Positions 20,341-31,012 of a stretch of 39,627 nt of DNA are shown here, piece by piece. Within the stretch, counting starts at the first letter, position 1, and each line of letters starts with the position of its first letter. A model generated the notes under the pieces. The model searched no databases. It was not told the DNA's origin and was given only the letters and a program-made list of their open reading frames with translations. The translations under genes and the position numbers were made by a program. Origin of the DNA: an uncultured Planctomycetota bacterium (GTDB taxonomy: Bacteria > Planctomycetota > Planctomycetia > Pirellulales > Thermoguttaceae); NCBI GenBank assembly GCA_902770245.1, contig CACXSS010000008.1, positions 1 through 39,627 on the forward strand, given 5' to 3'.

Positions 20341-20515
20341 GGGATAATTAGGAATTAGTGATTAGTAATTAGTAATTAGTAATAATATTCGAGTTCCGCT
20401 TTGCGTAATTACTCATTCCGTGGGTTAAAACCCACGGCTACTGATATTGAACCGCTAAAGCGGTTCTAGGGGAACGCGAAGCGTAATTACTCATTACTAA
20501 TTACTAATTTAATAA
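20341..20515. repeat. Heptameric ATTAGTA mosaic interrupted by a double-hairpin element
   Basis: The outer arms are ATTAGTA units (left, 20349-20385) and ATTACTA units (right, 20484-20512). Between them is a 66-bp module with two hairpins (20418-20483). The 15-base string GCGTAATTACTCATT occurs on both sides of the module (20403-20417 and 20481-20495), like a target-site duplication. Confidence 0.85.
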
Positions 20516-20524
20516 ATTCGCCGT

Positions 20525-21577
20525 CTATTTTTTCTTGGCGCCTTTGATTGGAATCTTGATTCGTTGAACAAAATGTTCTGCGTTTTTAGATTCTGTCAGT
20601 TCAGCCGCTTTTTGTCGGGCTTCGGCTTCCTGATCAAAGGGGAAGTCAAACAGCTTTTTCATTTCCGGAGAGAAAACGCCCCAACAGACTTTGCACGGAC
20701 CTTCCAAAAGCGCTTCGATCTTTTTTCGGGTCATTTTTTTCGCGCCGATCTTTTTCATCTTGCGTTTTTTGCTCTTTCGGCGAGGGGCTTCTTCTTCGTC
20801 TGAGTAGAAGTCCGAATCGTCGTCAAACGCGTCCAGAGAATCGTCTGACAAATCGCCTAAATCATCGTCTTCAAAGTCGTCAGACGAATCATCGTAATTG
20901 TCGTCGTCATAGGACTCTTCTTCGTCTTCTTCCGGTTCAAAGTCGTCAGTAAAGTCGTCTTCCAGGTCGAGCTGATCTGGCTCAATAGATTTCTTCTTGA
21001 ACTCTTCTTCCGGTTCTTTTTTTTCTTCTTCAGCCTTACGGCGGCGTTTTTGTTCGACTTTTTCACGAATAGTCGACGTTTTGGGGGCATCCTCGAAATC
21101 CGTCAAAGATTTGGAAATATCTTTGTCGGCTTTAGACGACTTTTTGACGGTTTTCTTTGTTTTGGTTGATTTTTCAGCCGTCTCTTTTGATGCAGGTTTA
21201 ACATCGGCATCCGACTTTTGGGCAGCTTTTTTTACTGTCGTTTTTTTCGGAGACGCTTTTGCTTCTGAGGTTTTTGAAGCGGCGGCTTTGGTTGACGCAG
21301 CTTCTTTAGCAACAGTTTTTTTCACTGTTGTCTTTTTGGTTTTAAGAGTAGATTTCTTTTTTTCTTCGTTATCAGCAGTCATAGATTTTTTCGCAGTTTT
21401 GTTTACGGATTCTTCTGACGAAACGTCTGCTTTTTTAGTCGTCTTTTTTACAGTCGATGTTGCAGCAGACGTCTTCTTTCCGGCTATAGCGGTTTTGGGG
21501 GCGGCTTTGGAGACGTCTGTTTTTTTAGCGGACGTCTTTTTGCTCGAAGCCGCAACTGGTTTGGCCTTCGTACTCAT
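20525..21577 (-). CDS. Lysine-rich histone-like / acidic tripartite protein
   Basis: 350 residues in three parts. Residues 1 to about 160 are Lys/Ala/Ser/Thr-rich with repeated KKTTVKK-like units, resembling bacterial histone H1-like tails. About 195-260 is strongly acidic (Asp/Glu/Ser, with runs such as DDDNYDD). A basic stretch RRKSKKRKMKKIGAKK follows, then a small C-terminal domain of about 70 residues with CKVCWGVF, DFPFDQEAEARQKAAEL and HFVQRIKIP. The start ATG 21577 has an AGAGG Shine-Dalgarno 8-9 bases upstream. A nucleoid- or nucleic-acid-binding role is likely from composition only. CxxC is one pair, so a zinc site is possible but not shown. Confidence 0.8.
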   Translation of the reverse strand: MSTKAKPVAASSKKTSAKKTDVSKAAPKTAIAGKKTSAATSTVKKTTKKADVSSEESVNKTAKKSMTADNEEKKKSTLKTKKTTVKKTVAKEAASTKAAASKTSEAKASPKKTTVKKAAQKSDADVKPASKETAEKSTKTKKTVKKSSKADKDISKSLTDFEDAPKTSTIREKVEQKRRRKAEEEKKEPEEEFKKKSIEPDQLDLEDDFTDDFEPEEDEEESYDDDNYDDSSDDFEDDDLGDLSDDSLDAFDDDSDFYSDEEEAPRRKSKKRKMKKIGAKKMTRKKIEALLEGPCKVCWGVFSPEMKKLFDFPFDQEAEARQKAAELTESKNAEHFVQRIKIPIKGAKKK

Positions 21578-22132
21578 TTAGGATACCTCTGTGAAGCGTC
21601 AAAACGCAATTCAGAACAAAACTGGATTCTGTATAAGAGCAGTTTTCCTGACAATGCGCCAGCGGAATAGCAAAACGCGTTTTTCAAAGAAGTATACGCG
21701 CGGGAAATGCAAACCGCTAACCAAAAATATAACCATTCGACATAACTATTCACATACGTCTGTTGGATTGAGCGCCGAAAAATAAAGTCAAAAAAATGTT
21801 GAACGCTTCAACAGATAAAAACGCTGTGAGGACTTATATCAAATTAATAACCGGATTGGATTATGGCATCGTGAAACAGGCTCTATCGTCCATAAGCCTA
21901 TTCACAACGATTATAACATTTTACAGTATATCTACGTTTTTTTCCAGAGGGAGAGCCTGAATTTTTCTGATTTTTCCCAAAAATTTTTCAATTTTATCCG
22001 GAAAACGTTAAATCGACGTTTCCCAATCGGGTGATTTAGGATATACTCAACGTCGATTTGAACTGCGAGCGCTCCGGACTGCCGGCGGTCTGAGCCGCGA
22101 TTCAGTCTTTCACCCTGAAGATACACTATCAG
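21578..22132. other. Divergent intergenic region, histone-like / yhaM
   Basis: About 555 bases without a credible gene; a 64-codon frame at 21591-21785 has no ribosome site and atypical residues. The region must hold two divergent promoters. The clearest signal is the inverted repeat at 22010-22059, described separately. A short inverted repeat TTATGG...CCATAA lies near 21861-21895. Confidence 0.55.
22010..22059 (+). promoter_or_regulatory. Inverted repeat around a candidate -10 box upstream of the yhaM-like gene
   Basis: AAATCGACGTT (22010-22020) and AACGTCGATTT (22049-22059) are perfect 11-bp inverted repeats. They enclose TATACT (22042-22047), a -10-like hexamer with no clear -35. The arrangement suggests an operator looping over a promoter or a leader RNA stem. 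It lies about 75-120 bases before the ATG at 22133. Confidence 0.4.
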
Positions 22133-23101
22133 ATGCCTGAACATCAATTTATCAAAGACCTTGCTGACAAGACAGAGGTTAGTTCCGTATACCGTATTGC
22201 CAATAAACAGATTCGTCTTAACAGAAACGGAGACTCATATCTTCAAGTTGAGATCTATGACAAAACCGGGACGCTTACCGTTCGGATGTGGAACGCAGGC
22301 GAAAACGTCTATCGCGTCTTTGAAGTCGGCGATTACGTTCAGGTTTTGGGAAAAGCCCAGGTTTTTCAGGGAAATCTTCAGATTATCGCCAAAAAACTGG
22401 TGCATGCGGCAGAAGACGCTTATAATCCGGACGACTACGTCAAACAGGCGGAAATTGACATTACTAAACTTGTCAAACGTCTTAAACAGCTTGTCGAAAC
22501 GATTAAAACCCCGTCGTTGCGAAATTTGGCGGACTGTCTTCTAATTGACAACGAGTTTATGACTCGGTTTTGCGACGCTCCAGCCGGGGTGAAAAACCAT
22601 CACGCCTACAAGGGCGGGCTGCTGGAACATACCCTCTCGGTAATGGAACTGGCGGATAAAACGGCGGCGCTGTACCCGATTTTGAACCGGGATTTGCTTC
22701 TTACTGGAGCGCTGGTTCACGACATCAGCAAAATTGACGAAATCCGCTTTGACGTTGAAATAACCTATTCGGACGAAGGACAGCTGCTGGGGCATCTGGT
22801 TATGGGCGTTGAAAAACTCAATGAGAAGATTGCGGAATCGGAAAGACAATCTGGCGAACCGATGTCGGATTATCTCAAGACGCAGCTCAAACATCTGATT
22901 ATCAGCCATCATGGGGAATACGAGTTCGGTTCTCCCAAACTGCCGATGACCCTTGAGGCGGTTACGCTTCATCATTTGGACTGCATGGACTCCAAAATCG
23001 TCGGATTTGCTCAGCTTATTCAGGAAGACATGAACGACGACTCCAACTGGACGTGTTACGTTCCATCGTTACAGCGTAAAATATTCAAAGGAGAAAAGTA
23101 A
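22133..23101 (+). CDS. yhaM: 3'-5' exoribonuclease of the YhaM family (OB fold + HD domain)
   Basis: 322 residues. Residues about 15-95 are an OB-type nucleic-acid-binding fold (VYRIANKQIRLNRNGDSYLQVEIYDKTGTLTVRMW is split over its first strands). About 150-290 is an HD metal phosphohydrolase domain: H156/H157, H166 in GGLLEHT, H196-D197 in GALVHDISKI, then SHHGEYEFGS and LHHLDCMDSK. This order matches YhaM/CbfA exonucleases that trim RNA or nicked DNA from 3' ends. The start ATG 22133 is the family start region. The stop overlaps the next ATG by one base (TAATG), so the two genes are coupled. Confidence 0.9.
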   Translation: MPEHQFIKDLADKTEVSSVYRIANKQIRLNRNGDSYLQVEIYDKTGTLTVRMWNAGENVYRVFEVGDYVQVLGKAQVFQGNLQIIAKKLVHAAEDAYNPDDYVKQAEIDITKLVKRLKQLVETIKTPSLRNLADCLLIDNEFMTRFCDAPAGVKNHHAYKGGLLEHTLSVMELADKTAALYPILNRDLLLTGALVHDISKIDEIRFDVEITYSDEGQLLGHLVMGVEKLNEKIAESERQSGEPMSDYLKTQLKHLIISHHGEYEFGSPKLPMTLEAVTLHHLDCMDSKIVGFAQLIQEDMNDDSNWTCYVPSLQRKIFKGEK

Positions 23102-25068
23102 TGCTTGCGCTGCTGTTTTTGATTGTCGTCGTATTGACTCAACCGCTGGTTTGCCAAGCGGCTCCGTCATTGTCATACGACGCGGATTTTGTCAAAACGC
23201 TGCGCGAAATGCGTCTTTATCGACTGGGAGAATCTTATCTCGCCGAGAAATTGACCCAGGACGATTTGTCGGACAAGGCAAGCTCCGAGCTGACAAGCGC
23301 GATGGTAGAACTGCTGGGCGAAGAAAGCCTTTGCACGTCTTCCGATAAACAGGGCGACATATCAGACAAAGCGCAGCGCTTTGCAGACGAGTATCTTAAA
23401 ACGCACGGAGACAGCCCGTTCAGAATTCGCGTTTTGCTGGCGTTGGCTATCAACGGCGTCAATGCCGGAGAATTGGGGGCGATGAACGTTCAGCTTCTTC
23501 CAGGCGACGAGCCGACCCGACAGGCGGCGTTAACCCGTCTGCGTCAAACGGACGAGCAAATAAAAGCGCAGTTACAAATTCTCAATACGCCCTCTAACGC
23601 GATCGACCCTAAAACCAATCAAAAAGTTTTTTCTGACGACCTTTGGCAGAGAATCAAAAATCAGACGGCGTTCCTCTCCGCCCGGCGCGCGCTGGCAATG
23701 GCGAAATGCTATCCTGCCGGCAGTCCGGAATATTCAGACTGCGTTGTTCAGGCGAACGCGGAACTCAAGCCCTTGGGGGCGATTCCGTCTACAGACCCTC
23801 TTTGCTGGCAGGCGCGTTTGCTGCGAGTTCGAGCTGAAAGAATGTCGGGCGACGTTCAAGCCGCCCAAAGCGCGTTGGCATTTATGCTTGAACAGCAAAA
23901 GCCGCCCATGGAAATGCTCATGGATTTTCAGGCGGAAAAACTGTACGCGCTCATGTCTGCCAATCGTCCTGCCGCTATCAAGACGCTTTCCGAGCTGGAA
24001 CGCTCTCTGGGAGATTCGTTTTCCAATGCCGATTCGACTGACGATGCCGCGCATTTGGCGGTTCTGGACGCCTATGTAACACTCGAAAAAGAGGCTGCGG
24101 CGCGCGGCGACAAAAACGAGCAAAAAACCTGGCAGAGCAAAGCGTCTCAATGGGCGGAAAAGATGCGTTTATACGACAGTGGCTTTTACGCGCGAAGCGC
24201 TCAGCAGGTTTTGGCGGCGATGGCGGTTAAAAGTCTGGAAGAATCCGAAACCGGAAATGCGGCAAGTTCTCAAGCCCCTTCAACGATTGCCTTGGCAGCG
24301 GAAAATCTCTTTAGAGAAGGACAGCTTCAAAAAGCGATTGACGCCTATCTCAAAGCGGCGGAAAAAGAGCGTTTGTCGTCCTCTGCAAATGAGGAAAACG
24401 TATTCAAGTATCAGTACGTTGCCGCTGCGATTGCTCATAAGCTCGACGACCACGTTCAGGCGGCGGCTCTGTTTCGCCAGGCGGCGATTGACAATCCCAA
24501 CAACCCCAAAGCCGCCCAGGCGTTCAAAACGGCTCTGTTCCATGCGGGAAAGCTGGTTGACGTCAATAAGCCTGAAACCGCTGAACGCTATTCCAATATG
24601 TTGGACGAATTCCTCAAGACGTTCCCGGATTCCCCGGACGTCAATTTGATTCGTCAGCAAAAGCAGCGTCTTTCAGAAGCGCTCAAGGCAATTCCCAAGA
24701 CGCCGGCAGAGCGCCTTTCAGAAGCGCAAACCGCGCTGAAAGAAAACCGCCCGAAAGACGCAGTTGCGCTGTTTACGCCGCTGGCGAAAGAGTTTCCCAA
24801 CGCTCAAGACGTTCAGATCGGGTTTGCAGAAGCTCTGTCGGCGGCAAACGCTGACCAGGACGCGTTAGCTCAATGGCGAAAAGTCGCTCAAAACGTCAAA
24901 CAGTATTCCCCGCAATGGTATCGCGCCAAATACGAAGTGGCATCATTGCTTGTTAAAACAGGACAGAAGGATAAAGCAGCGGAAATGATTCGTTTGCTCA
25001 AACTCCTGCGTCCTGACTTGGGCGGAACCGAATGGTCTGAAAAATTTGAAAAATTACTCACAAATTAA
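23101..25068 (+). CDS. Exported tetratricopeptide-repeat protein
   Basis: 655 residues with a signal peptide (MLALLFLIVVVLTQPLVCQAA) and helical repeats throughout. TPR-like units are clearest near 400-470 (AENLFREGQLQKAIDAYLKAAE, then AAAIAHKLDDHVQAAALFRQAA) and 540-640 (AQTALKENRPKDAVALF). AAGGAG sits 8-11 bases before the ATG, and the ATG overlaps the stop of the upstream exonuclease gene, so expression is coupled. It is presumably a periplasmic scaffold; no partner can be named. The pairing of a cytoplasmic exonuclease with an exported TPR protein may reflect only operon history. Confidence 0.85.
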   Translation: MLALLFLIVVVLTQPLVCQAAPSLSYDADFVKTLREMRLYRLGESYLAEKLTQDDLSDKASSELTSAMVELLGEESLCTSSDKQGDISDKAQRFADEYLKTHGDSPFRIRVLLALAINGVNAGELGAMNVQLLPGDEPTRQAALTRLRQTDEQIKAQLQILNTPSNAIDPKTNQKVFSDDLWQRIKNQTAFLSARRALAMAKCYPAGSPEYSDCVVQANAELKPLGAIPSTDPLCWQARLLRVRAERMSGDVQAAQSALAFMLEQQKPPMEMLMDFQAEKLYALMSANRPAAIKTLSELERSLGDSFSNADSTDDAAHLAVLDAYVTLEKEAAARGDKNEQKTWQSKASQWAEKMRLYDSGFYARSAQQVLAAMAVKSLEESETGNAASSQAPSTIALAAENLFREGQLQKAIDAYLKAAEKERLSSSANEENVFKYQYVAAAIAHKLDDHVQAAALFRQAAIDNPNNPKAAQAFKTALFHAGKLVDVNKPETAERYSNMLDEFLKTFPDSPDVNLIRQQKQRLSEALKAIPKTPAERLSEAQTALKENRPKDAVALFTPLAKEFPNAQDVQIGFAEALSAANADQDALAQWRKVAQNVKQYSPQWYRAKYEVASLLVKTGQKDKAAEMIRLLKLLRPDLGGTEWSEKFEKLLTN

Positions 25069-25132
25069 AAAAAGGGTCAAAATTGCTCTGGATTTATTTG
25101 TTAAAATTCGCTAATATGAGGGCGCATGTTTA

Positions 25133-25200
25133 GGTCGCAGGCAATAGTCATCAGGGATTTTTTAACTCCTTACGCCTGACTCCTTGCTCCTAACTTAAAA
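25133..25200. repeat. Short heptameric mosaic
   Basis: After GGCAATAGTCATCAGG the segment carries ACTCCTT, ACGCCTG, ACTCCTT and GCTCCTA in tandem with 7-bp period, a short version of the pyrimidine-rich arm of the other mosaics. It lies between the TPR and transpeptidase-like genes. Confidence 0.7.
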
Positions 25201-25231
25201 CCAAGCAGCCATTAACCATTCATAAATAACC

Positions 25232-26548
25232 ATGAAAGAAACCTTACGCATATTGTTTTCTGCCGCCTTTCTTTCCACAGTATTTTTGTGTGCGTATAAC
25301 TACGTCAATTCCTCGGCAGACGATCGTCAGAATTCATTATCCGCTTTTTTCGGAGACAGTTCTGAAAAACAGGGCGGCGAATCGGCGCCAGCAGACGACA
25401 GCTTCCAGTTTGGTCCGTCTGATTCGTTTTCGCCCTCGCCTGTTCAGAGCAATCAAAATTCTCAGCCGTCGCCGTTTAACAACGCCGCCGACAGTGCGAG
25501 TCTTCCTCTGCTGCCGCCAGAAAGTCAGCAGGCAGCGCCGTCGGCTCCGTATGGTTTAGCCGCTCCAACGGTTACTGAAAACAATCTGCCGCCAAACGAA
25601 TCTCCGATTATAGAACCGCTTACGCCGGACGTTCCTTCGCCGCCAAACGTTGCTCCGATTGATCCGGTTGCGCCCATTGCTCCGATTGCCCCGGACGGTT
25701 CTGCCGACGTTATACCTGTAACGCAGGACGTAAATCAAAATAATAACCTGCCAAATCAAGTTATGAATCCGCCAGCTCAGGACAGTGAAGACCGCGCTGC
25801 CGTTGCCGCTTTTATTGCAGAGGCCCATCAAAGAATTAACAGAGGAGAAATTCTCCCGACGCTCTTTAAGCTCAGTCAATACTACAATGCGCCGCAGTTC
25901 ACTCCGGAAGAAGCCAAACAGGTTCACTACATGCTCATGCAGTTGGCGGGCGAGGTTATTTATCTTCACCCGGAAAAGTATTTCAATTTGTACACGGTTC
26001 AGCCGGGCGATACAATAACTTCAATTGCCGGTCAGCATCAGGTGCCGTGGCAGTTTATCGCCAAAATCAACGGGATGACGGCTCCGTATCATGTCAATCC
26101 GGGCGAACAGCTTAAAGTTGTACGAGGTCCGTTCAACGCCGAGATTCATTTAGACAGATACGAATTGACGCTTTGGCTGCCGGTTGGAACAGACTCCAGT
26201 CAGTCTCTTTACGCTGGAACGTTCCCTATCGGATTGGGCGGAGACTGTCCCAAATTGCAGGGCGACTATATTGTAGATGAAAAGTTTATCAATCCCGAAT
26301 ACCCGAAATTTTCCCAAAATCCAACGACTTTCGGACCGGGCGATGCCAACAACCCGTACGGCAGCCGACTTTTAGCCCTGACATGCGTTAACGATCAAAA
26401 CCATGTCAAAATTGGAATTCACGGGACGAACAATCCGCAGTACATTCGTCAGTCCGTTCCTTACGGTTTTATTTGTCTCGGAGCGCGTGACATCAACGAT
26501 TTGTACGATATTCTATCCGTTGGATCAAGAATTAAGATTGAGCGCTGA
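25232..26548 (+). CDS. LysM + L,D-transpeptidase (YkuD)-like exported protein with altered catalytic motif
   Basis: 438 residues. An N-terminal membrane segment (MKETLRILFSAAFLSTVFLCAY) precedes a Pro/Ser/Gln/Asn-rich linker to about 180. A helical part with the segment HYMLMQLAGEVIYLHPEKYF follows. A LysM domain is at about 252-298 (YTVQPGDTITSIA, VNPGEQLKV), and a YkuD-fold domain at about 304-437. The usual HxGT..S-x-G-C-I-R motif is present as H397-GTNNP and SVPYGFICLGARD: Phe413 occupies the catalytic Cys position and Cys415 sits two residues later. It either binds peptidoglycan without transpeptidation or uses the shifted Cys. No Shine-Dalgarno; ATG context AACCATG. Peptidoglycan-facing envelope role inferred. 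Confidence 0.85.
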   Translation: MKETLRILFSAAFLSTVFLCAYNYVNSSADDRQNSLSAFFGDSSEKQGGESAPADDSFQFGPSDSFSPSPVQSNQNSQPSPFNNAADSASLPLLPPESQQAAPSAPYGLAAPTVTENNLPPNESPIIEPLTPDVPSPPNVAPIDPVAPIAPIAPDGSADVIPVTQDVNQNNNLPNQVMNPPAQDSEDRAAVAAFIAEAHQRINRGEILPTLFKLSQYYNAPQFTPEEAKQVHYMLMQLAGEVIYLHPEKYFNLYTVQPGDTITSIAGQHQVPWQFIAKINGMTAPYHVNPGEQLKVVRGPFNAEIHLDRYELTLWLPVGTDSSQSLYAGTFPIGLGGDCPKLQGDYIVDEKFINPEYPKFSQNPTTFGPGDANNPYGSRLLALTCVNDQNHVKIGIHGTNNPQYIRQSVPYGFICLGARDINDLYDILSVGSRIKIER

Positions 26549-26549
26549 G

Positions 26550-26664
26550 GGAACAGGGAATGGGGAATAGGGAATAGTAATTCGCCTTTGGCGAATTCAA
26601 AATAAACTCCTCACTCCTCACTCCTCACTCCTCACTCACAACTACTCCCTATTCCCGACCCCCT
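26550..26664. repeat. Heptameric GGGAATA / ACTCCTC mosaic with core hairpin
   Basis: The left arm is GGGAACA, GGGAATG, GGGAATA, GGGAATA. The core hairpin is AATTCGCC-TTT-GGCGAATT (26579-26597). The right arm has CTCCTCA four times in perfect tandem, then CTACTCC, CTATTCC. It ends at the ATG of the epimerase gene, so it forms that gene's entire 5' region. Confidence 0.9.
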
Positions 26665-27615
26665 ATGAAATACCTTGTAACCGGCGGCGCCGGATTTATC
26701 GGTTCTAATTTAACCCATTATTTACTTCAGCAAGGGCAGTCCGTCGTTGTCCTGGACGACCTGTCAACCGGAAAGCCGGACAACCTTGCCGACATTCTCG
26801 ATAAAATTGAATTCGTTCAGGGCGACGTTCGAGACAAAAGCGCCGTTCTACAAGCCATGACAGGTTGTAACGGCGTGTTTCATCTTGCCGCAATGGCGTC
26901 TGTACAAAAAAGCATTGACCGCCCGGAAGACGCTCACGCGATTAACGTCGGCGGAACGCTCAACGTTTTGGAATCCATGAAAGAGCTTGGCGTTCGCCGG
27001 GTTGTTCTGGCTGCGTCCGCTGCTGCGTACGGCAATCAGCCGCAGACGCCCAAGACGGAATCCATGCCGGTCGAGCCGCTGTCGCCCTACGCGGCGGACA
27101 AAATCGCCTGTGAAGCGTACATGCAAGCGTATCATAACAGTTACGGACTGGAAACGGTCTGCTTGCGATACTTCAATATTTTTGGACCTCGTCAAGATCC
27201 CAAAGGCGCATACGCCGCCGTTATTCCCGCTTTTGTCTGTAAACTCATCGCCGGACAGCGTCCTGTCGTTTACGGGGACGGAGAACAGACGCGGGACTTC
27301 TGCTTTGTCGAAAACGTCTGCCGCGCCAACTGGCTGGCAATGAACGTTTCGCCGGAAAAATGTGACGGAAAGCCGATTAATATCGCCTGCGCTGAAGCCG
27401 TGTCGCTAAATGTGATTCTCAAAACGCTCAAAGAACTGTTACATTCCGACATTGAGCCGATTTACGAACCCGAGCGTATCGGAGACGTCAAACATTCGCT
27501 GGCAGACATTTCCAGAGCGAAAGAAGTTCTTGGCTACGAACCGACCGTTCGTTTCGCCAAAGGGCTTGAATTGGCGATTGACTTTTATAAGAGCATTGCA
27601 AATAAGAGGGAGTAG
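26665..27615 (+). CDS. NAD-dependent nucleotide-sugar epimerase/dehydratase
   Basis: Extended short-chain dehydrogenase fold, 316 residues. GGAGFIG at residues 7-13 binds NAD, GDVRD and FHLAA follow, and the catalytic pair is Y142 and K146 (SPYAADK). The upstream Ser/Thr region reads AASAAAYG rather than the common SSSxVYG; LRYFNIFGPRQDP and GDGEQTRDFCFVENV are typical of UDP-glucose or UDP-N-acetylglucosamine 4-epimerases (WbpP/GalE-like). The exact sugar is not decidable. It likely feeds surface glycan or lipopolysaccharide synthesis. The start lies immediately after a repeat with no Shine-Dalgarno. The stop TAG (27613-27615) and the last two codons (AGG GAG) are part of the next heptameric repeat. 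Confidence 0.9.
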   Translation: MKYLVTGGAGFIGSNLTHYLLQQGQSVVVLDDLSTGKPDNLADILDKIEFVQGDVRDKSAVLQAMTGCNGVFHLAAMASVQKSIDRPEDAHAINVGGTLNVLESMKELGVRRVVLAASAAAYGNQPQTPKTESMPVEPLSPYAADKIACEAYMQAYHNSYGLETVCLRYFNIFGPRQDPKGAYAAVIPAFVCKLIAGQRPVVYGDGEQTRDFCFVENVCRANWLAMNVSPEKCDGKPINIACAEAVSLNVILKTLKELLHSDIEPIYEPERIGDVKHSLADISRAKEVLGYEPTVRFAKGLELAIDFYKSIANKRE

Positions 27616-27720
27616 GGAATGGGGAACAGGAAAAAGTAATTCGCCTGCGGCGATTTTTAATACTATTCCCTACGCTCTAAACTACTCCCAACTCCCTATC
27701 CCCTATTCCCAATTTTACTA
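27604..27720. repeat. Heptameric GGGAATA mosaic with core hairpin
   Basis: Units GGGAGTA, GGGAATG, GGGAACA on the left; core hairpin TCGCC-TGC-GGCGA (27641-27653); units around CTATTCC, CTACTCC, CAACTCC, CTATCCC, CTATTCC on the right. The left arm overlaps the 3' end of the epimerase gene and supplies its stop codon. Confidence 0.88.
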
Positions 27721-27724
27721 AATC

Positions 27725-28554
27725 ATGAGTAAAACAAAAACGTTAGATGAATTCGTCGAACAGTTTCGCGTCAAGCCGGGAAAGAACGTCAATTTGAAAA
27801 AGGATTTCGACCCCGGATTTCACGGCGATTATTTCGATAAAAACTCCGCCGCCGACGCGCTCCAGGAAGGGATCGTTCACTTGGCTGAGTGGCAGGAAAA
27901 GCTCTATGCGGAAGGAAAGCGGAGTCTGCTGATTATCTTTCAGGCGATGGACGCCGCCGGGAAGGACTCGACGATTAAACACGTCATGTCTGGGCTCAAC
28001 CCGCAGGGCTGTCAGGTTACCAGCTTCAAATCGCCCTCGGCGCAGGAACTGTCGTACGGATACCTGTGGCGATGCGCCAAAGCCGTCCCGCCCAAAGGAT
28101 TTATCGGGATTTTCAACCGCTCGCACTATGAAGAGGTGCTCATCTACAAGGTGAAGGAGCTGTGGAAGACCCAGGCACATGCGGACCGGCTCAGCGAGAA
28201 GAAGGAGCGGGAATATCCTTTCAACCCCAAACTGGACGAGAGCAGAAAAAACGGTTTCTGGAACGTCTGAAAAACGAGGAGAAAAACTGGAAGTTCTCAA
28301 CGTCCGATCTCAAAGAGCGCGCCTGCTGGGACAAATATCAAGACGCCTTTAACGACATGCTCAGCGCGACCAGTACCGCCGCGGCGCCGTGGTACGTTGT
28401 TCCCGCCGATAAAAAATGGTTTACCCGTCTGGCGGTCGCAGCTACGATTTATCTGACCCTGGAAGACCTCAACCCGCAGTTCCCAGCCGTTTCAGAAATT
28501 CAAAAAGCCGCGTTCGCCGACGCGCGAAAGGCGCTGGAATCCGAAAAAGACTAA
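27725..28554 (+). pseudogene. ppk2: Broken polyphosphate kinase 2
   Basis: PPK2 uses polyphosphate to phosphorylate nucleotides. The first frame (27725-28270) reads normally through Walker A (D76-AAGKDST), IKHVMSGLNPQG and FNRSHYEEVLIYKV. After KELW the usual block (roughly W..RY..IN.FE..L..NGT...KFFLHIS) is missing, replaced by about 30 residues of unrelated charged sequence. The frame then shifts: the conserved C-terminal part resumes as EQKKRFLERL, NWKFS, WDKYQDAFNDM, APWYVVPADKKWFTRL in another frame and ends at 28554. The deletion removes roughly 35 conserved residues, so this is not just one sequencing error. A gene of this kind is about 290-310 codons; here 276. It is probably non-functional. 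Confidence 0.8.
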
Positions 28555-28616
28555 CGCGGAAAACGACAGCGACAAGATAAACAGACGAGAATCATACAGA
28601 AAACCATAACGCATAA

Positions 28617-28642
28617 CCTCAGACGGTTTCAGCCGTCTGAGG
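28617..28642. terminator. Perfect 10-bp hairpin after ppk2
   Basis: CCTCAGACGG (28617-28626), loop TTTCAG, CCGTCTGAGG (28633-28642). It is a strong stem, but only CCTTTTG follows on the plus strand about eight bases later, so termination is plausible rather than certain. Confidence 0.5.
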
Positions 28643-28685
28643 AATCGCCTTTTGAATTATTTGATAGCCAAAAGGTTTTATAAAA

Positions 28686-28919
28686 ATGGAAAGAACATTA
28701 TGGACTATCGTTATTCTCGTTTTATTTTTTATCTTCTCATGTCTTATATTTTCCCGAACGCGTCCATTTCTTAAGAAATATCTTCCTCAATGGTTTGCTG
28801 CAATTCTTTCAATTATAATAAGCATTGTACTGGGCTATTTCATGTCGATGGTTATTTTAATATTTATTTTACTCATTGGCATGCTTATTGGAATAATACC
28901 TCTTGGCGTTCTACTGTAG
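28686..28919 (+). CDS. Small membrane protein, first of a tandem pair
   Basis: 77 residues, almost entirely two hydrophobic helices (about 5-25 and 38-72) joined by a short basic loop, SRTRPFLKKYLPQW. It aligns with the next gene's product: RxxPFxKK, then QW, then AxILSIxIS. Composition is AT-rich (TTA, ATA, ATT codons), unlike the surrounding genes. There is no Shine-Dalgarno before ATG 28686. No family is recognised. The similarity to its neighbour is the best evidence that it is a real gene. Confidence 0.7.
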   Translation: MERTLWTIVILVLFFIFSCLIFSRTRPFLKKYLPQWFAAILSIIISIVLGYFMSMVILIFILLIGMLIGIIPLGVLL

Positions 28920-28961
28920 AACGCTTGTCGAAATCCCTATTGTATTAACAGGAGAACGATA

Positions 28962-29216
28962 ATGAAAGATTATATTGTAATTCTAATCATGTTGTTGGTC
29001 TTGACAGTGCAATCTTTCATTGCGTATTATTTATTTCGGCGAATACATCCCTTTTTTAAAAAATCGTACACTCAATGGAGCGCCAGAATATTATCTATTA
29101 TGATAAGCGTTGCTGCAGTCTTTCTGTTATCAGTTGCAATAATTTTTCTGGTTTTTCTCATTTGTATATTAACAGGCGCGATAACCCTGGACGAACAATC
29201 CTGGCGTTTCAATTAA
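28962..29216 (+). CDS. Small membrane protein, second of a tandem pair
   Basis: 84 residues with the same plan as the preceding gene: an N-terminal helix, a basic loop RRIHPFFKKSYTQW, then ARILSIMIS and a second hydrophobic region ending in a short polar tail. A Shine-Dalgarno AGGAGA lies 8-10 bases upstream of ATG 28962. The two genes are probably a duplication that has diverged. The pair lies between the broken ppk2 and the caspase-FGE gene, in AT-rich DNA that may have been acquired. The function is unknown. Confidence 0.75.
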   Translation: MKDYIVILIMLLVLTVQSFIAYYLFRRIHPFFKKSYTQWSARILSIMISVAAVFLLSVAIIFLVFLICILTGAITLDEQSWRFN

Positions 29217-29299
29217 ACAATCCTTTTACATTTTAATCATTTAACCAGCAGGGACAGCTAGCGGTATTTGTCGATTTCTTTTTTTGTTATTCTTTTTGT

Positions 29300-29365
29300 C
29301 CGTGAGTTTCACCCACGGCTAGAAACATTGAACTGCTACGCAGTTCTAGCGGAACGCTATCGCGT
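29300..29365. repeat. Second copy of the double-hairpin element
   Basis: Aligns with 20418-20483. Hairpin 1 is CCGTGAGT-TTC-ACCCACGG (one mismatch in the stem here). Hairpin 2 is GAACTGC-TAC-GCAGTTC, where the other copy has GAACCGC-TAAA-GCGGTTC, so one base pair changed from C-G to T-A on both sides. The conserved tail TAGnGGAACGC follows in both. Confidence 0.8.
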
Positions 29366-29500: not shown

Positions 29501-31012
29501 ATGCGTCGTTATATTACTTTATTGTTTTTCGTTTTAGTTGCCTGTTTAGCTCAAACGTCCCAGGCGCGCAAGGTCGCGCTGCTGGTCGGGGTGGATAGTT
29601 ACGTAAGCGTCCCGAGTCTCAAATGCTGCGTTAACGACATGAAAGCTCTTAAAGAAGCGTTGATGAAAATCGGCTTTGAAGAGGACGATATTCGAATCCT
29701 TGTAACCGGCGCCAGCGATTCCAAAGATCTGCCGACGAAAAGAAATATCGAAAAGACGATTTCCCAAATTCTGACGAACGCTCAGCCAACGGATATGGTT
29801 CTTCTGGCTTTCTCAGGACACGGGGCGCAGGACGGCAAAAGCGTTTACTTCTGCCCGCTGGAGGTAGAATTGGAAGATCTGGATGGAACGTACGTTTCGA
29901 TTAACAAGGTTATGGACATTCTCGCCAACAAATGCAGCGCCAAGTTCAAATGGATGGTTGTAGACGCGTGCCGGAGCGACCCAACTCAGGGACCTAAGGG
30001 TATCGGCGGGAAAGGATTGCAGGTTATTCAGACTCCGCCGGCTGGCATCGCTCTTTTCCAGAGCTGCGCCGAAGGGGAACAGAGCTGGGAAGACTACGAC
30101 AGTGGAAAGGGCTTCTTCACGAAAAACTTTGCCGCCGAGGCGCAAAAGGCAATGGACGAAGAAAACTACAAGCTGGCGATTCAAAAATACGACGAAGCAA
30201 TTGCTCTATGTCCAAGATTTGAACACTGGAAACGGGAACGAAAATTAGCGCAAAGATTACTGCATCCAACGCCGCCGACTGTAACTCCGGCTCCAAATAC
30301 TCCAGCTCCTGCACCGGTACGGACGTCAACAGAACCCAACGCGGGCGACCGCAAAGTAGAAACGATTAACGGCGTGGAATTCGCGTTCCGCTGGTGTCCG
30401 GCAGGAACGTTCACGATGGGGTCGCCAACGTCAGAAGAAGACCACAGTAGCGACAAAACGCAGCATAAAGTAACGCTGACCAAAGGCTTCTGGATGATGG
30501 AAACGGAGGTAACGCAAAAGCAGTGGAAAGCGGTTATGGGAGACAATCCGACAAGATATGACATTGGCGGCAATCGCCCAGTAACTCACGTTTCTTGGAA
30601 TGACTGTCAGGAATTTTGCCGAAAAACGGGATTGCAGCTTCCCACGGAAGCGCAGTGGGAGTACGCTTGCCGGGCAGGCAGTACAGGAGCGTATGCCGGG
30701 AATCTTGACGATATGGCGTGGTATGAAAATAATAGCGGTAGTAGAACGCATTCCGTTGGAACGAAGAAGCCCAACGCCTGGGGGTTGTACGACATGCACG
30801 GGAACGTTTATGAGTGGTGCCAGGATTGGTTTGGAAAGTATCCCAGCGGGAGTGTAACGGATCCGACGGGACCTTCTAGTGGCTCGGACCGCGTCGGCCG
30901 CGGCGGCAGCTGGGACGACGACGCCGGGGGCTGCCGGTCGGCGTACCGCAGCTACGGCGAGCCGGGCTACCGGTACTACTACTTGGGGTTCCGTGTCCTC
31001 AGAGGTCAATAA
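29501..31012 (+). CDS. Secreted caspase-like protease fused to an FGE/C-type-lectin-fold domain; likely DGR target
   Basis: 503 residues. Signal peptide 1-22 (MRRYITLLFFVLVACLAQTSQA). A peptidase C14 (caspase/metacaspase) domain spans about 23-210, with VALLVGVDSY, the catalytic His as H107 in AFSGHGA and the catalytic Cys as C157 in VVDACRSDP. A short TPR-like helix pair (EENYKLAIQKYDEAIALCP) follows directly, cutting short the usual caspase C-terminus. A Pro/Thr/Ala linker is at about 255-285. An FGE-sulfatase-type domain covers about 289-503: MGSP, ETEVTQKQW, PTEAQWEYACRAG, GLYDMHGNVYEW, RGGSW, GFRVLRGQ. The Cys pair of true formylglycine-generating enzymes is not seen, so it is a binding fold. 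AGGAG is 9 bases before ATG. The last 40 codons look like a retroelement variable region. Confidence 0.92.
   Translation: MRRYITLLFFVLVACLAQTSQARKVALLVGVDSYVSVPSLKCCVNDMKALKEALMKIGFEEDDIRILVTGASDSKDLPTKRNIEKTISQILTNAQPTDMVLLAFSGHGAQDGKSVYFCPLEVELEDLDGTYVSINKVMDILANKCSAKFKWMVVDACRSDPTQGPKGIGGKGLQVIQTPPAGIALFQSCAEGEQSWEDYDSGKGFFTKNFAAEAQKAMDEENYKLAIQKYDEAIALCPRFEHWKRERKLAQRLLHPTPPTVTPAPNTPAPAPVRTSTEPNAGDRKVETINGVEFAFRWCPAGTFTMGSPTSEEDHSSDKTQHKVTLTKGFWMMETEVTQKQWKAVMGDNPTRYDIGGNRPVTHVSWNDCQEFCRKTGLQLPTEAQWEYACRAGSTGAYAGNLDDMAWYENNSGSRTHSVGTKKPNAWGLYDMHGNVYEWCQDWFGKYPSGSVTDPTGPSSGSDRVGRGGSWDDDAGGCRSAYRSYGEPGYRYYYLGFRVLRGQ
30887..31009 (+). other. Candidate DGR variable region (VR) in the FGE-fold domain
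   Basis: Residues D463-Q503. Codons ending in C dominate: GAC, GGC, TGC, GCC, TAC, AGC. They fall at the surface-loop positions D472-D474, A475, G477, C478, Y482, S484-G486, G489, Y490 and Y492-Y494. All are reachable from AAC by changing only the first two bases, as DGR adenine mutagenesis does. The invariant framework (RGGSW, RSA-R, GFRV) is retained. The upstream part of the gene uses mixed third bases, so composition jumps sharply at the segment edge. No template copy, Avd or reverse transcriptase is in the window. Confidence 0.7.

What the first reader, a model, noticed from the sequence alone, without database searches (positions are those of the whole stretch)
20418..29365. 66-bp double-hairpin element present twice with a compensated base pair
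Copies at 20418-20483 and 29300-29365 align throughout. In hairpin 2 a C-G pair in one copy is T-A in the other, both arms changed, so pairing is preserved. The loops and linker vary. That is the pattern expected if the structure is functional in RNA or as single-stranded DNA.
Basis: seen in the sequence. Interest (0 to 1): 0.55.

Follow-up and report, generated by a model that had tools for sequence, protein, structure and literature searches.

The report
Dispersed double-hairpin mobile DNA repeat
The two matching hairpin pairs are copies of a short, probably mobile DNA repeat scattered tens to hundreds of times through gut Planctomycetota genomes, and one close relative carries a small single-strand-DNA transposase gene sitting inside an array of the same repeat, which makes that enzyme family its likely driver.

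Summary
In detail: a two-hairpin unit lies at 20418-20483 and 29300-29365, with a compensated C-G/T-A pair in hairpin 2. The unit is a dispersed repeat: 81 pattern matches in this genome and 138, 229 and 35 in three congeners, none for the reversed pattern. The conserved part is H1, CTAnnnAYATT, H2, TAGnGGAA. Copies are mostly extragenic, lie in both orientations, and are present or absent at orthologous sites. In one congener a 153-aa Y1 (HUH) transposase gene sits between arrays of this unit. Homologous Y1 genes, including one on a Persicobacter plasmid (Bacteroidota), have double hairpins of other sequence beside them. By motif the enzyme matches TnpA-Y1 subclass 1.2, listed as having no REP in the 2018 classification (PMC6006769). 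My reading: a REP-like, non-autonomous single-strand-DNA element of that enzyme group. Against it: the window's own genome has no close partner gene, the tree does not make the group a clade, and within this family broken stem pairs (30) outnumber compensated ones (14). Mobility was inferred, not tested.

The parts
20418..20437 (+). copy 1, hairpin 1 (H1): 8-bp stem, 4-base loop
   Evidence: sequence, fold, alignment A2
20438..20448 (+). copy 1, linker CTACTGATATT (consensus CTAnnnAYATT; reverse strand reads GTAG at the foot of H1)
20449..20466 (+). copy 1, hairpin 2 (H2): 7-bp stem, 4-base loop
20467..20483 (+). copy 1, 3' tail: TAGGGGAA (conserved part) and a small CGCGAAGCG palindrome, variable among copies
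20353..20378 (.). left arm of the inverted heptamer array that brackets copy 1
20484..20509 (.). right arm of the inverted heptamer array that brackets copy 1
20403..20417 (.). 15-bp direct repeat GCGTAATTACTCATT, left of copy 1 (second copy 20481-20495); not shown to be a target duplication, since it is part of the local repeat mosaic
29265..29275 (+). TATTTGTCGAT, the conserved motif that in composite copies follows the long upstream hairpin H0; H0 itself is not seen here
   Evidence: sequence; 41 of 111 copies carry the motif
29300..29318 (+). copy 2, H1 with an uncompensated G-to-A at 29305
29319..29329 (+). copy 2, linker CTAGAAACATT
29330..29346 (+). copy 2, H2 with the T-A variant pair
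29347..29365 (+). copy 2, 3' tail TAGCGGAA and a small ACGCTATCGCGT palindrome
26619..26663 (.). spacer without the element, where congener G058 carries one at the orthologous place

Best explanation
The unit is a REP-like, non-autonomous mobile element made of two different hairpins in fixed order and orientation (a double-hairpin REP). Shown: it is a high-copy, mostly extragenic dispersed repeat; it is present or absent at orthologous sites between congeners; arrays of it flank one Y1 (HUH) transposase gene in a congener; and homologous Y1 genes in other genera have double hairpins of different sequence beside them. Inferred: the Y1 enzyme binds the folded single strand (H1, the unpaired CTAnnnAYATT linker and H2), cuts and rejoins it beside the hairpins, and so spreads copies, as established for IS200/IS605 transposases and proposed for TnpA-REP. 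Copies in the window's genome would be products of a partner enzyme that is now absent, not assembled, or replaced by the related L011-type enzyme.
For: Copy number 81/138/229/35 in four congeners, reversed-pattern control 0 in each. 4 of 120 copies lie inside an ORF of 100 aa or more, by my own simple ORF calling. Copy-1 site: element in 2 of 4 congeners (G000, G058), absent in G057 and G059, which hold other repeats there. A second polymorphic site at window 26619-26663. Y1 gene in L114/L133 (153 aa, PF01797 92.7 bits): two full and one truncated reversed copies on its left, four forward copies on its right; one copy of this gene in that genome, other Y1 matches there are 42% and 39% identical. 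L134 (59% identical Y1): three copies left, one right, all forward. Over 35 Y1 loci, oriented double hairpins number 31 in 27.2 kb within 400 bp of the gene and 2 in 68.2 kb beyond; 15 of 35 loci have at least one, 5 of 35 on both sides. Persicobacter plasmid Y1 has inverted double hairpins on both sides, the right one recurring at 21 places in 4 Persicobacter records. Genomes with a covariance-model hit for the unit carry a Y1 homologue more often: 21 of 24 versus 28 of 95 (Fisher p 2.6e-7; without the genus 18 of 20 versus 28 of 95, p 5.9e-7).
Against: No close partner gene in the window's own genome (best 40-43% identical), nor in two of the three congeners (39% in G057, no match in G059), although these have 35-138 copies; the assemblies are fragmented. 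20 of 35 Y1 loci showed no double hairpin by my detector, and Bernardetia shows only the linker and a single short hairpin. The near/far control is not matched for coding content. The Fisher test ignores kinship. Orientation of flanking copies differs (inverted in L133, direct in L134). In the tree the enzymes with the subclass 1.2 motif are not one clade: the IS200 controls join beside L111 and L133 (89/91 and 96/90, long-branch warning). No transposition or clean single-step empty site was seen; flanks at both polymorphic sites differ by more than the element.
Confidence: 0.7

Rival explanations
1. A structured RNA element (for example a 3' UTR or regulatory RNA) spread by duplication; the hairpins act in RNA.
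For: Stable hairpins; 98.2% of 509 stem cells paired in 34 distinct rows with both-side changes above all 500 shuffles; copies are extragenic.
Against: No strand preference relative to genes (23 same, 33 opposite, 15 convergent, 14 divergent); equal + and - wobble changes (13 and 11); arrays around a transposase gene; no Rfam match at either copy up to E 1.
Confidence: 0.08
2. Transcription terminators or mRNA stabilisers, amplified because useful to the host.
For: A terminator-like match on the - strand at copy 2 (29346-29330; one found, 0.2 expected).
Against: None at copy 1; no run of T conserved after either hairpin; 14 of 85 classified copies lie between divergent genes, where a terminator has no role.
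Confidence: 0.05
3. Decayed ends of IS200/IS605 insertion sequences: the hairpins are left and right ends of vanished elements, without a REP-like life of their own.
For: The partner scores as IS200/IS605 family transposase (NF033573, 72.9 bits, cut-off 55) and not as REP-associated transposase (NF047646, 27 bits, cut-off 80).
Against: Copies outnumber the gene by about 229 to 1 in G058; the core is uniform and arrays repeat every ~73 bp; 3 of 4 congeners have the repeats without the gene.
Confidence: 0.12

Closest known systems
REP elements and REPtrons of TnpA-REP/RAYT (class 2 TnpA-Y1, e.g. subclasses 2.2 and 2.5)
   Same: High-copy extragenic hairpins; one Y1 gene flanked by its own hairpin type; several hairpin families in one genome, each with its own Y1 gene.
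   Different: Two different hairpins in fixed order, not one; GTAG foot in only part of the copies; partner enzyme has Y-x3-Q-x2-HH, not Y-x3-NP, and fails the NCBIfam REP-transposase cut-off.
TnpA-Y1 subclass 1.2 (Quentin et al. 2018, PMC6006769; sections 6, 12 and part 1 of 15 read)
   Same: DHVH, WQ and YIHNQKEHH motifs, 153 aa, one copy of the gene.
   Different: That paper's Table 1 lists no REP for subclass 1.2 and a distribution of Cyanobacteria and Bacteroidetes; here double hairpins are beside such genes in Planctomycetota and one Bacteroidota plasmid.
IS200/IS605 ends (IS608, ISDra2)
   Same: Class 1 Y1 enzyme and single-strand hairpins; nearest solved structures are transposases, 2xm3 E 3.3e-6 and ISHp608 2a6m E 0.0015.
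   Different: No multi-copy gene-bearing element found; hairpins are 11 nt apart without cargo.
REPINs / BIMEs
   Same: Arrays and composites: in some copies an inverted second double hairpin and a long central hairpin H0 form a REPIN-like unit.
   Different: The basic unit here is two direct, unlike hairpins; the central long hairpin has no counterpart that I know of (recalled).
Class 3 TnpA-Y1 of Planctomycetes (PMC6006769)
   Same: Phylum; atypical hairpins in high copy.
   Different: That class has NHVH and YV..EQ motifs and a CnGA foot; the partner here has DHVH and Y-x3-Q-x2-HH.

Membership tests
REP / REPtron (class 2 RAYT) | many extragenic palindromic copies per genome | tested here: met
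   81 matches in own genome, control 0; 116 of 120 copies outside ORFs of 100 aa or more
REP / REPtron (class 2 RAYT) | one Y1 gene flanked by cognate repeats | tested here: met
   in congener G058 (L114/L133); not found in the window's own genome
REP / REPtron (class 2 RAYT) | GT[AG]G directly 5' of the hairpin foot | tested here: inconclusive
   reverse strand of H1 reads nTAG; GTAG in at least 30 of 117 copies among the linkers listed
REP / REPtron (class 2 RAYT) | partner Y1 enzyme with Y-x3-NP / REP-transposase profile | tested here: not met
   Y motif YIHNQKEHH; NF047646 27 bits, cut-off 80; class 2 rows form a separate clade, 100/100
TnpA-Y1 subclass 1.2 | DH[IV]H, WQ and Y---Q--HH motifs | tested here: met
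   partner L133: DHVH, WQ, YIHNQKEHH; among 35 loci 33 have Y-x3-Q-x2-HH, 29 DH[IV]H and 25 WQ as printed
TnpA-Y1 subclass 1.2 | a clade apart from IS200 (1.1) | tested here: inconclusive
   1.2-motif rows need 2 changes on the tree; IS200 controls join beside L111 and L133, with a long-branch warning
TnpA-Y1 subclass 1.2 | specific ~30-aa C-terminal domain | not tested
   no profile of that domain was at hand
IS200/IS605 insertion sequence | IS200-type transposase | tested here: met
   NF033573 72.9 bits, cut-off 55; PF01797 92.7 bits
IS200/IS605 insertion sequence | near-identical gene-bearing copies in the genome | tested here: not met
   one match at 100% in G058, the other two 42% and 39%
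IS200/IS605 insertion sequence | strand-specific excision as single-stranded circle | not testable with these tools
   needs biochemistry
Rfam RNA families | match above a family's gathering score | tested here: not met
   14 matches up to E 1 in 8 sources, none at or above gathering, none at the two copies

The most novel reading that the evidence does not exclude
The unit is a complete minimal transposon: H1 and H2 are the left-end and right-end hairpins of an IS200-type element with nothing between them but an 11-nt linker, excised and inserted by a class 1 Y1 enzyme acting in trans as a ~60-nt single-stranded DNA. This would make it among the smallest transposable units known, would explain why two unlike hairpins always travel together in one orientation and why head-to-tail arrays with a ~73-bp period form, and would give subclass 1.2 TnpA-Y1 enzymes, listed as having no REP, their substrate.
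Probability: 0.25. Interest if true: 0.75.

Novelty: new variant of a known kind. Interest (0 to 1): 0.5.

Why it matters
Subclass 1.2 of the Y1 transposase family was described in 2018 without a substrate. Gene-flanking double hairpins in two phyla supply a concrete, testable one, and a natural series of enzyme and hairpin pairs whose stems differ completely, useful for learning how HUH enzymes read folded single strands. It also explains much of the repeat-rich spacer DNA of rumen Planctomycetota, in which several Y1/hairpin families sit side by side.

Tried and rejected
Compensation as main proof: rejected. A looser collection (135 copies, 105 distinct rows, which also drew in poorly aligned and other-family rows) gave 40 both-side, 21 one-side and 119 broken cells, against shuffles of 6.6 (largest 14) and 175.7 (smallest 165); the stricter set used in the report required recognisable arms and so leans towards paired copies.

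RNA and terminator readings were tested and ranked low. Target-site duplication: the 15-bp direct repeat around copy 1 was considered and left open, since the same short palindrome plus heptamers recurs in the mosaic around other copies. Insertion-site preference: T at -1 in 76% of 67 copies without and 95% of 40 with the H0 motif, a lead only. Long upstream hairpin H0: 11 of 109 copies by a strict rule, its 3' motif in 41 of 111; it is a module often but not always present. Viral contigs: 0 matches to a fixed pattern. Cyanobacterial plasmid Y1 (L195, Kovacikia) lacks the 1.2 motif and has no double hairpin, so the cyanobacterial part of subclass 1.2 is untested. Phage hits were 26-31% identical IS200-type genes. 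Copy 2 orthologous site: synteny ends before it. For the second polymorphic site, the G057 and G059 loci held showed no copy, but I did not verify that they span the site.
Full report
What is there. Both fold better than shuffles as single strands. The core pattern is unique to these two places in the window.

A genome-wide repeat. Each copy used as a query gives 40 matches in the window's genome, the cap of the tool. An uncapped pattern count (up to 2 mismatches) gives 81 in the own genome and 138, 229 and 35 in three congeners, with 0 for the reversed pattern in each. A scan of genome contigs with a strict pattern found 62 stretches, all in three Thermoguttaceae MAGs from goat and buffalo gut (RGIG2232, RGIG3287, RGIG7588; records very near the window's genome may be left out there), and a scan of viral contigs found none. 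The window therefore comes from a Planctomycetota relative of these.

Anatomy. In 117 copies (78 distinct cores) the layout is H1 (8-bp stem), an 11-nt linker CTAnnnAYATT, and H2 (7-bp stem). The border is sharp at the 5' foot of H1, and TAGnGGAA follows H2. A third palindrome and other modules vary. Of 111 copies, 41 have a conserved motif upstream, TATTTGTCGAT or TGTTTGACGAT, which in full composites follows a long hairpin H0, sometimes with an inverted second double hairpin beyond it. Copy 2 keeps that motif (29265-29275) without a visible H0; copy 1 sits in inverted heptamer arrays.

Compensation. On 34 distinct rows (33 of this family in the own genome and one cousin), 98.2% of 509 stem cells are paired; 13 cells changed on both sides, 2 on one side, 9 are unpaired. 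Compensation exceeds shuffles, but broken pairs are twice as many, as expected of a repeat whose older copies decay.

Where copies lie. With simple ORF calling, 3 of 34 copies in the own genome and 1 of 86 in the MAG loci lie inside an ORF of 100 aa or more. In tandem gene contexts 23 point with the genes and 33 against; 15 lie between convergent and 14 between divergent genes. Changes that keep a wobble on the + strand (13) and on the - strand (11) are balanced. Nothing points to a sense RNA. One terminator-like match lies at copy 2 on the - strand, none at copy 1.

Presence and absence. Between the two genes around copy 1, the element is in the window's genome and G058 but not in G057, which holds an unrelated palindromic insert, nor in G059, which holds heptamer repeats. 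G058 has a copy at the place orthologous to window 26619-26663, where the window has none. These are turnover, but neither site is a clean single-step empty site.

A transposase inside the repeat. The own genome has nine Y1_Tnp matches, none in the window; six have the class 2 motif Y-x3-NP, and those viewed have hairpins of other sequence beside them. In congener RGIG3287 (G002/G058) a 153-aa Y1 gene (L114:1489-1950) has two full and one truncated reversed copies of the window's unit on its left and four forward copies on its right. It is the only copy of that gene there. A 59% identical Y1 in another genus (L134) has three copies of a near-identical unit on the left and one on the right, all forward. 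The own genome's nearest relative (L011/L157, ~40% identical) has cousin double hairpins (CCGGAGG..., CCGTAGACT...) and H0 on its 3' side; its relatives L112 and L117 have them on both sides.

How general. In 35 Y1 loci (30, L111, L112, L117 and two Bacteroidota plasmid loci), a detector for H1, a CT[AG]/TT[AG]-led linker and H2 found 31 sites in 27.2 kb within 400 bp of the gene and 2 in 68.2 kb further out; 15 of 35 loci have one, 5 on both sides, 20 none. Some of the 20 show single hairpins. The far control includes coding DNA, so the ratio overstates specificity. In Persicobacter (Bacteroidota) H2', TAG, H1' stands left and H1, CTA, H2 right of the gene, though the right H2 stem is only 5 bp and escaped the detector; the right-hand unit recurs at 21 places in 4 Persicobacter records. 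In Bernardetia only the linker CTACAAATATT and a single short hairpin were seen.

What enzyme. The partner is an IS200-type Y1 enzyme by profile (NF033573 72.9 bits over a cut-off of 55; NF047646, REP-associated, 27 bits under a cut-off of 80), with DHVH, WQ and YIHNQKEHH. In Quentin et al. 2018 (PMC6006769; outline, passages and sections 6, 12 and part 1 of 15 seen) this motif set is subclass 1.2, with Table 1 giving REP as 'no'. On a 58-row tree class 2 is separate (100/100) and the IS200 controls form a clade (99/98), but the 1.2-motif rows are not one clade: the IS200 controls join next to L111 and L133, with a long-branch warning. The assignment is therefore by motif.

Mechanism. Shown: dispersed repeat, site polymorphism, arrays at a Y1 gene, cognate double hairpins at homologous genes. 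Inferred from established work on IS608/ISDra2 and TnpA-REP (PMC8266576, introduction and first part of the discussion read): the enzyme binds the folded strand, uses unpaired bases next to the foot as a guide, cuts and rejoins. The conserved unpaired CTA and ATT of the linker are the natural candidates for a guide. The boldest reading is that H1 and H2 are the two ends of a cargo-free IS200-type element.

Literature. Searches for REP, RAYT, REPIN, TnpA-REP, REPtron, TnpA-Y1, Planctomycetes and Bacteroidetes (open-licence PMC papers only) listed no paper that, by title or abstract start, describes double-hairpin REPs of subclass 1.2. GTAG repeats in the PVC superphylum are known (PMC3733652, abstract and passages seen). 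The work of Bertels and Rainey on RAYT groups is known to me partly from recall.

Noticed in passing
window 20353-20378 and 20484-20509; many loci: Tandem heptamers (TAATTAC, GCAACTC, TTAGGAG, AGTGGTT types), often in inverted pairs, fill spacers around the copies; they recall cyanobacterial heptamer repeats (recalled).
   Followed up: partly
L020, L021, L038, L089 and others, upstream of H1: A long hairpin H0 (17-25 pairs) with different arms in each of 11 copies found by a strict rule, flanked by conserved ATCG.../...CGAT.
   Followed up: partly
G057 ortholog of the copy-1 spacer (L165): A different ~200-bp insert bounded by an inverted repeat with CGACGG/CCGTCG palindromes.
   Followed up: no
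L012-L017, L113, L116, L118-L122, L124, L125, L129, L131: Class 2 Y1 genes (Y-x3-NP), several with their own hairpin families nearby, some of which abut H2 of the window's unit in mosaics.
   Followed up: partly
window 29501-31012: Caspase-like plus FGE-sulfatase domain protein with 51, 75, 60 and 36 matches in the four congeners, a large paralogous family just downstream of copy 2.
   Followed up: no
L194 and L201 (Bernardetia plasmid): The linker CTACAAATATT recurs beside Y1 genes in Bacteroidota next to a single short hairpin, without H1.
   Followed up: partly
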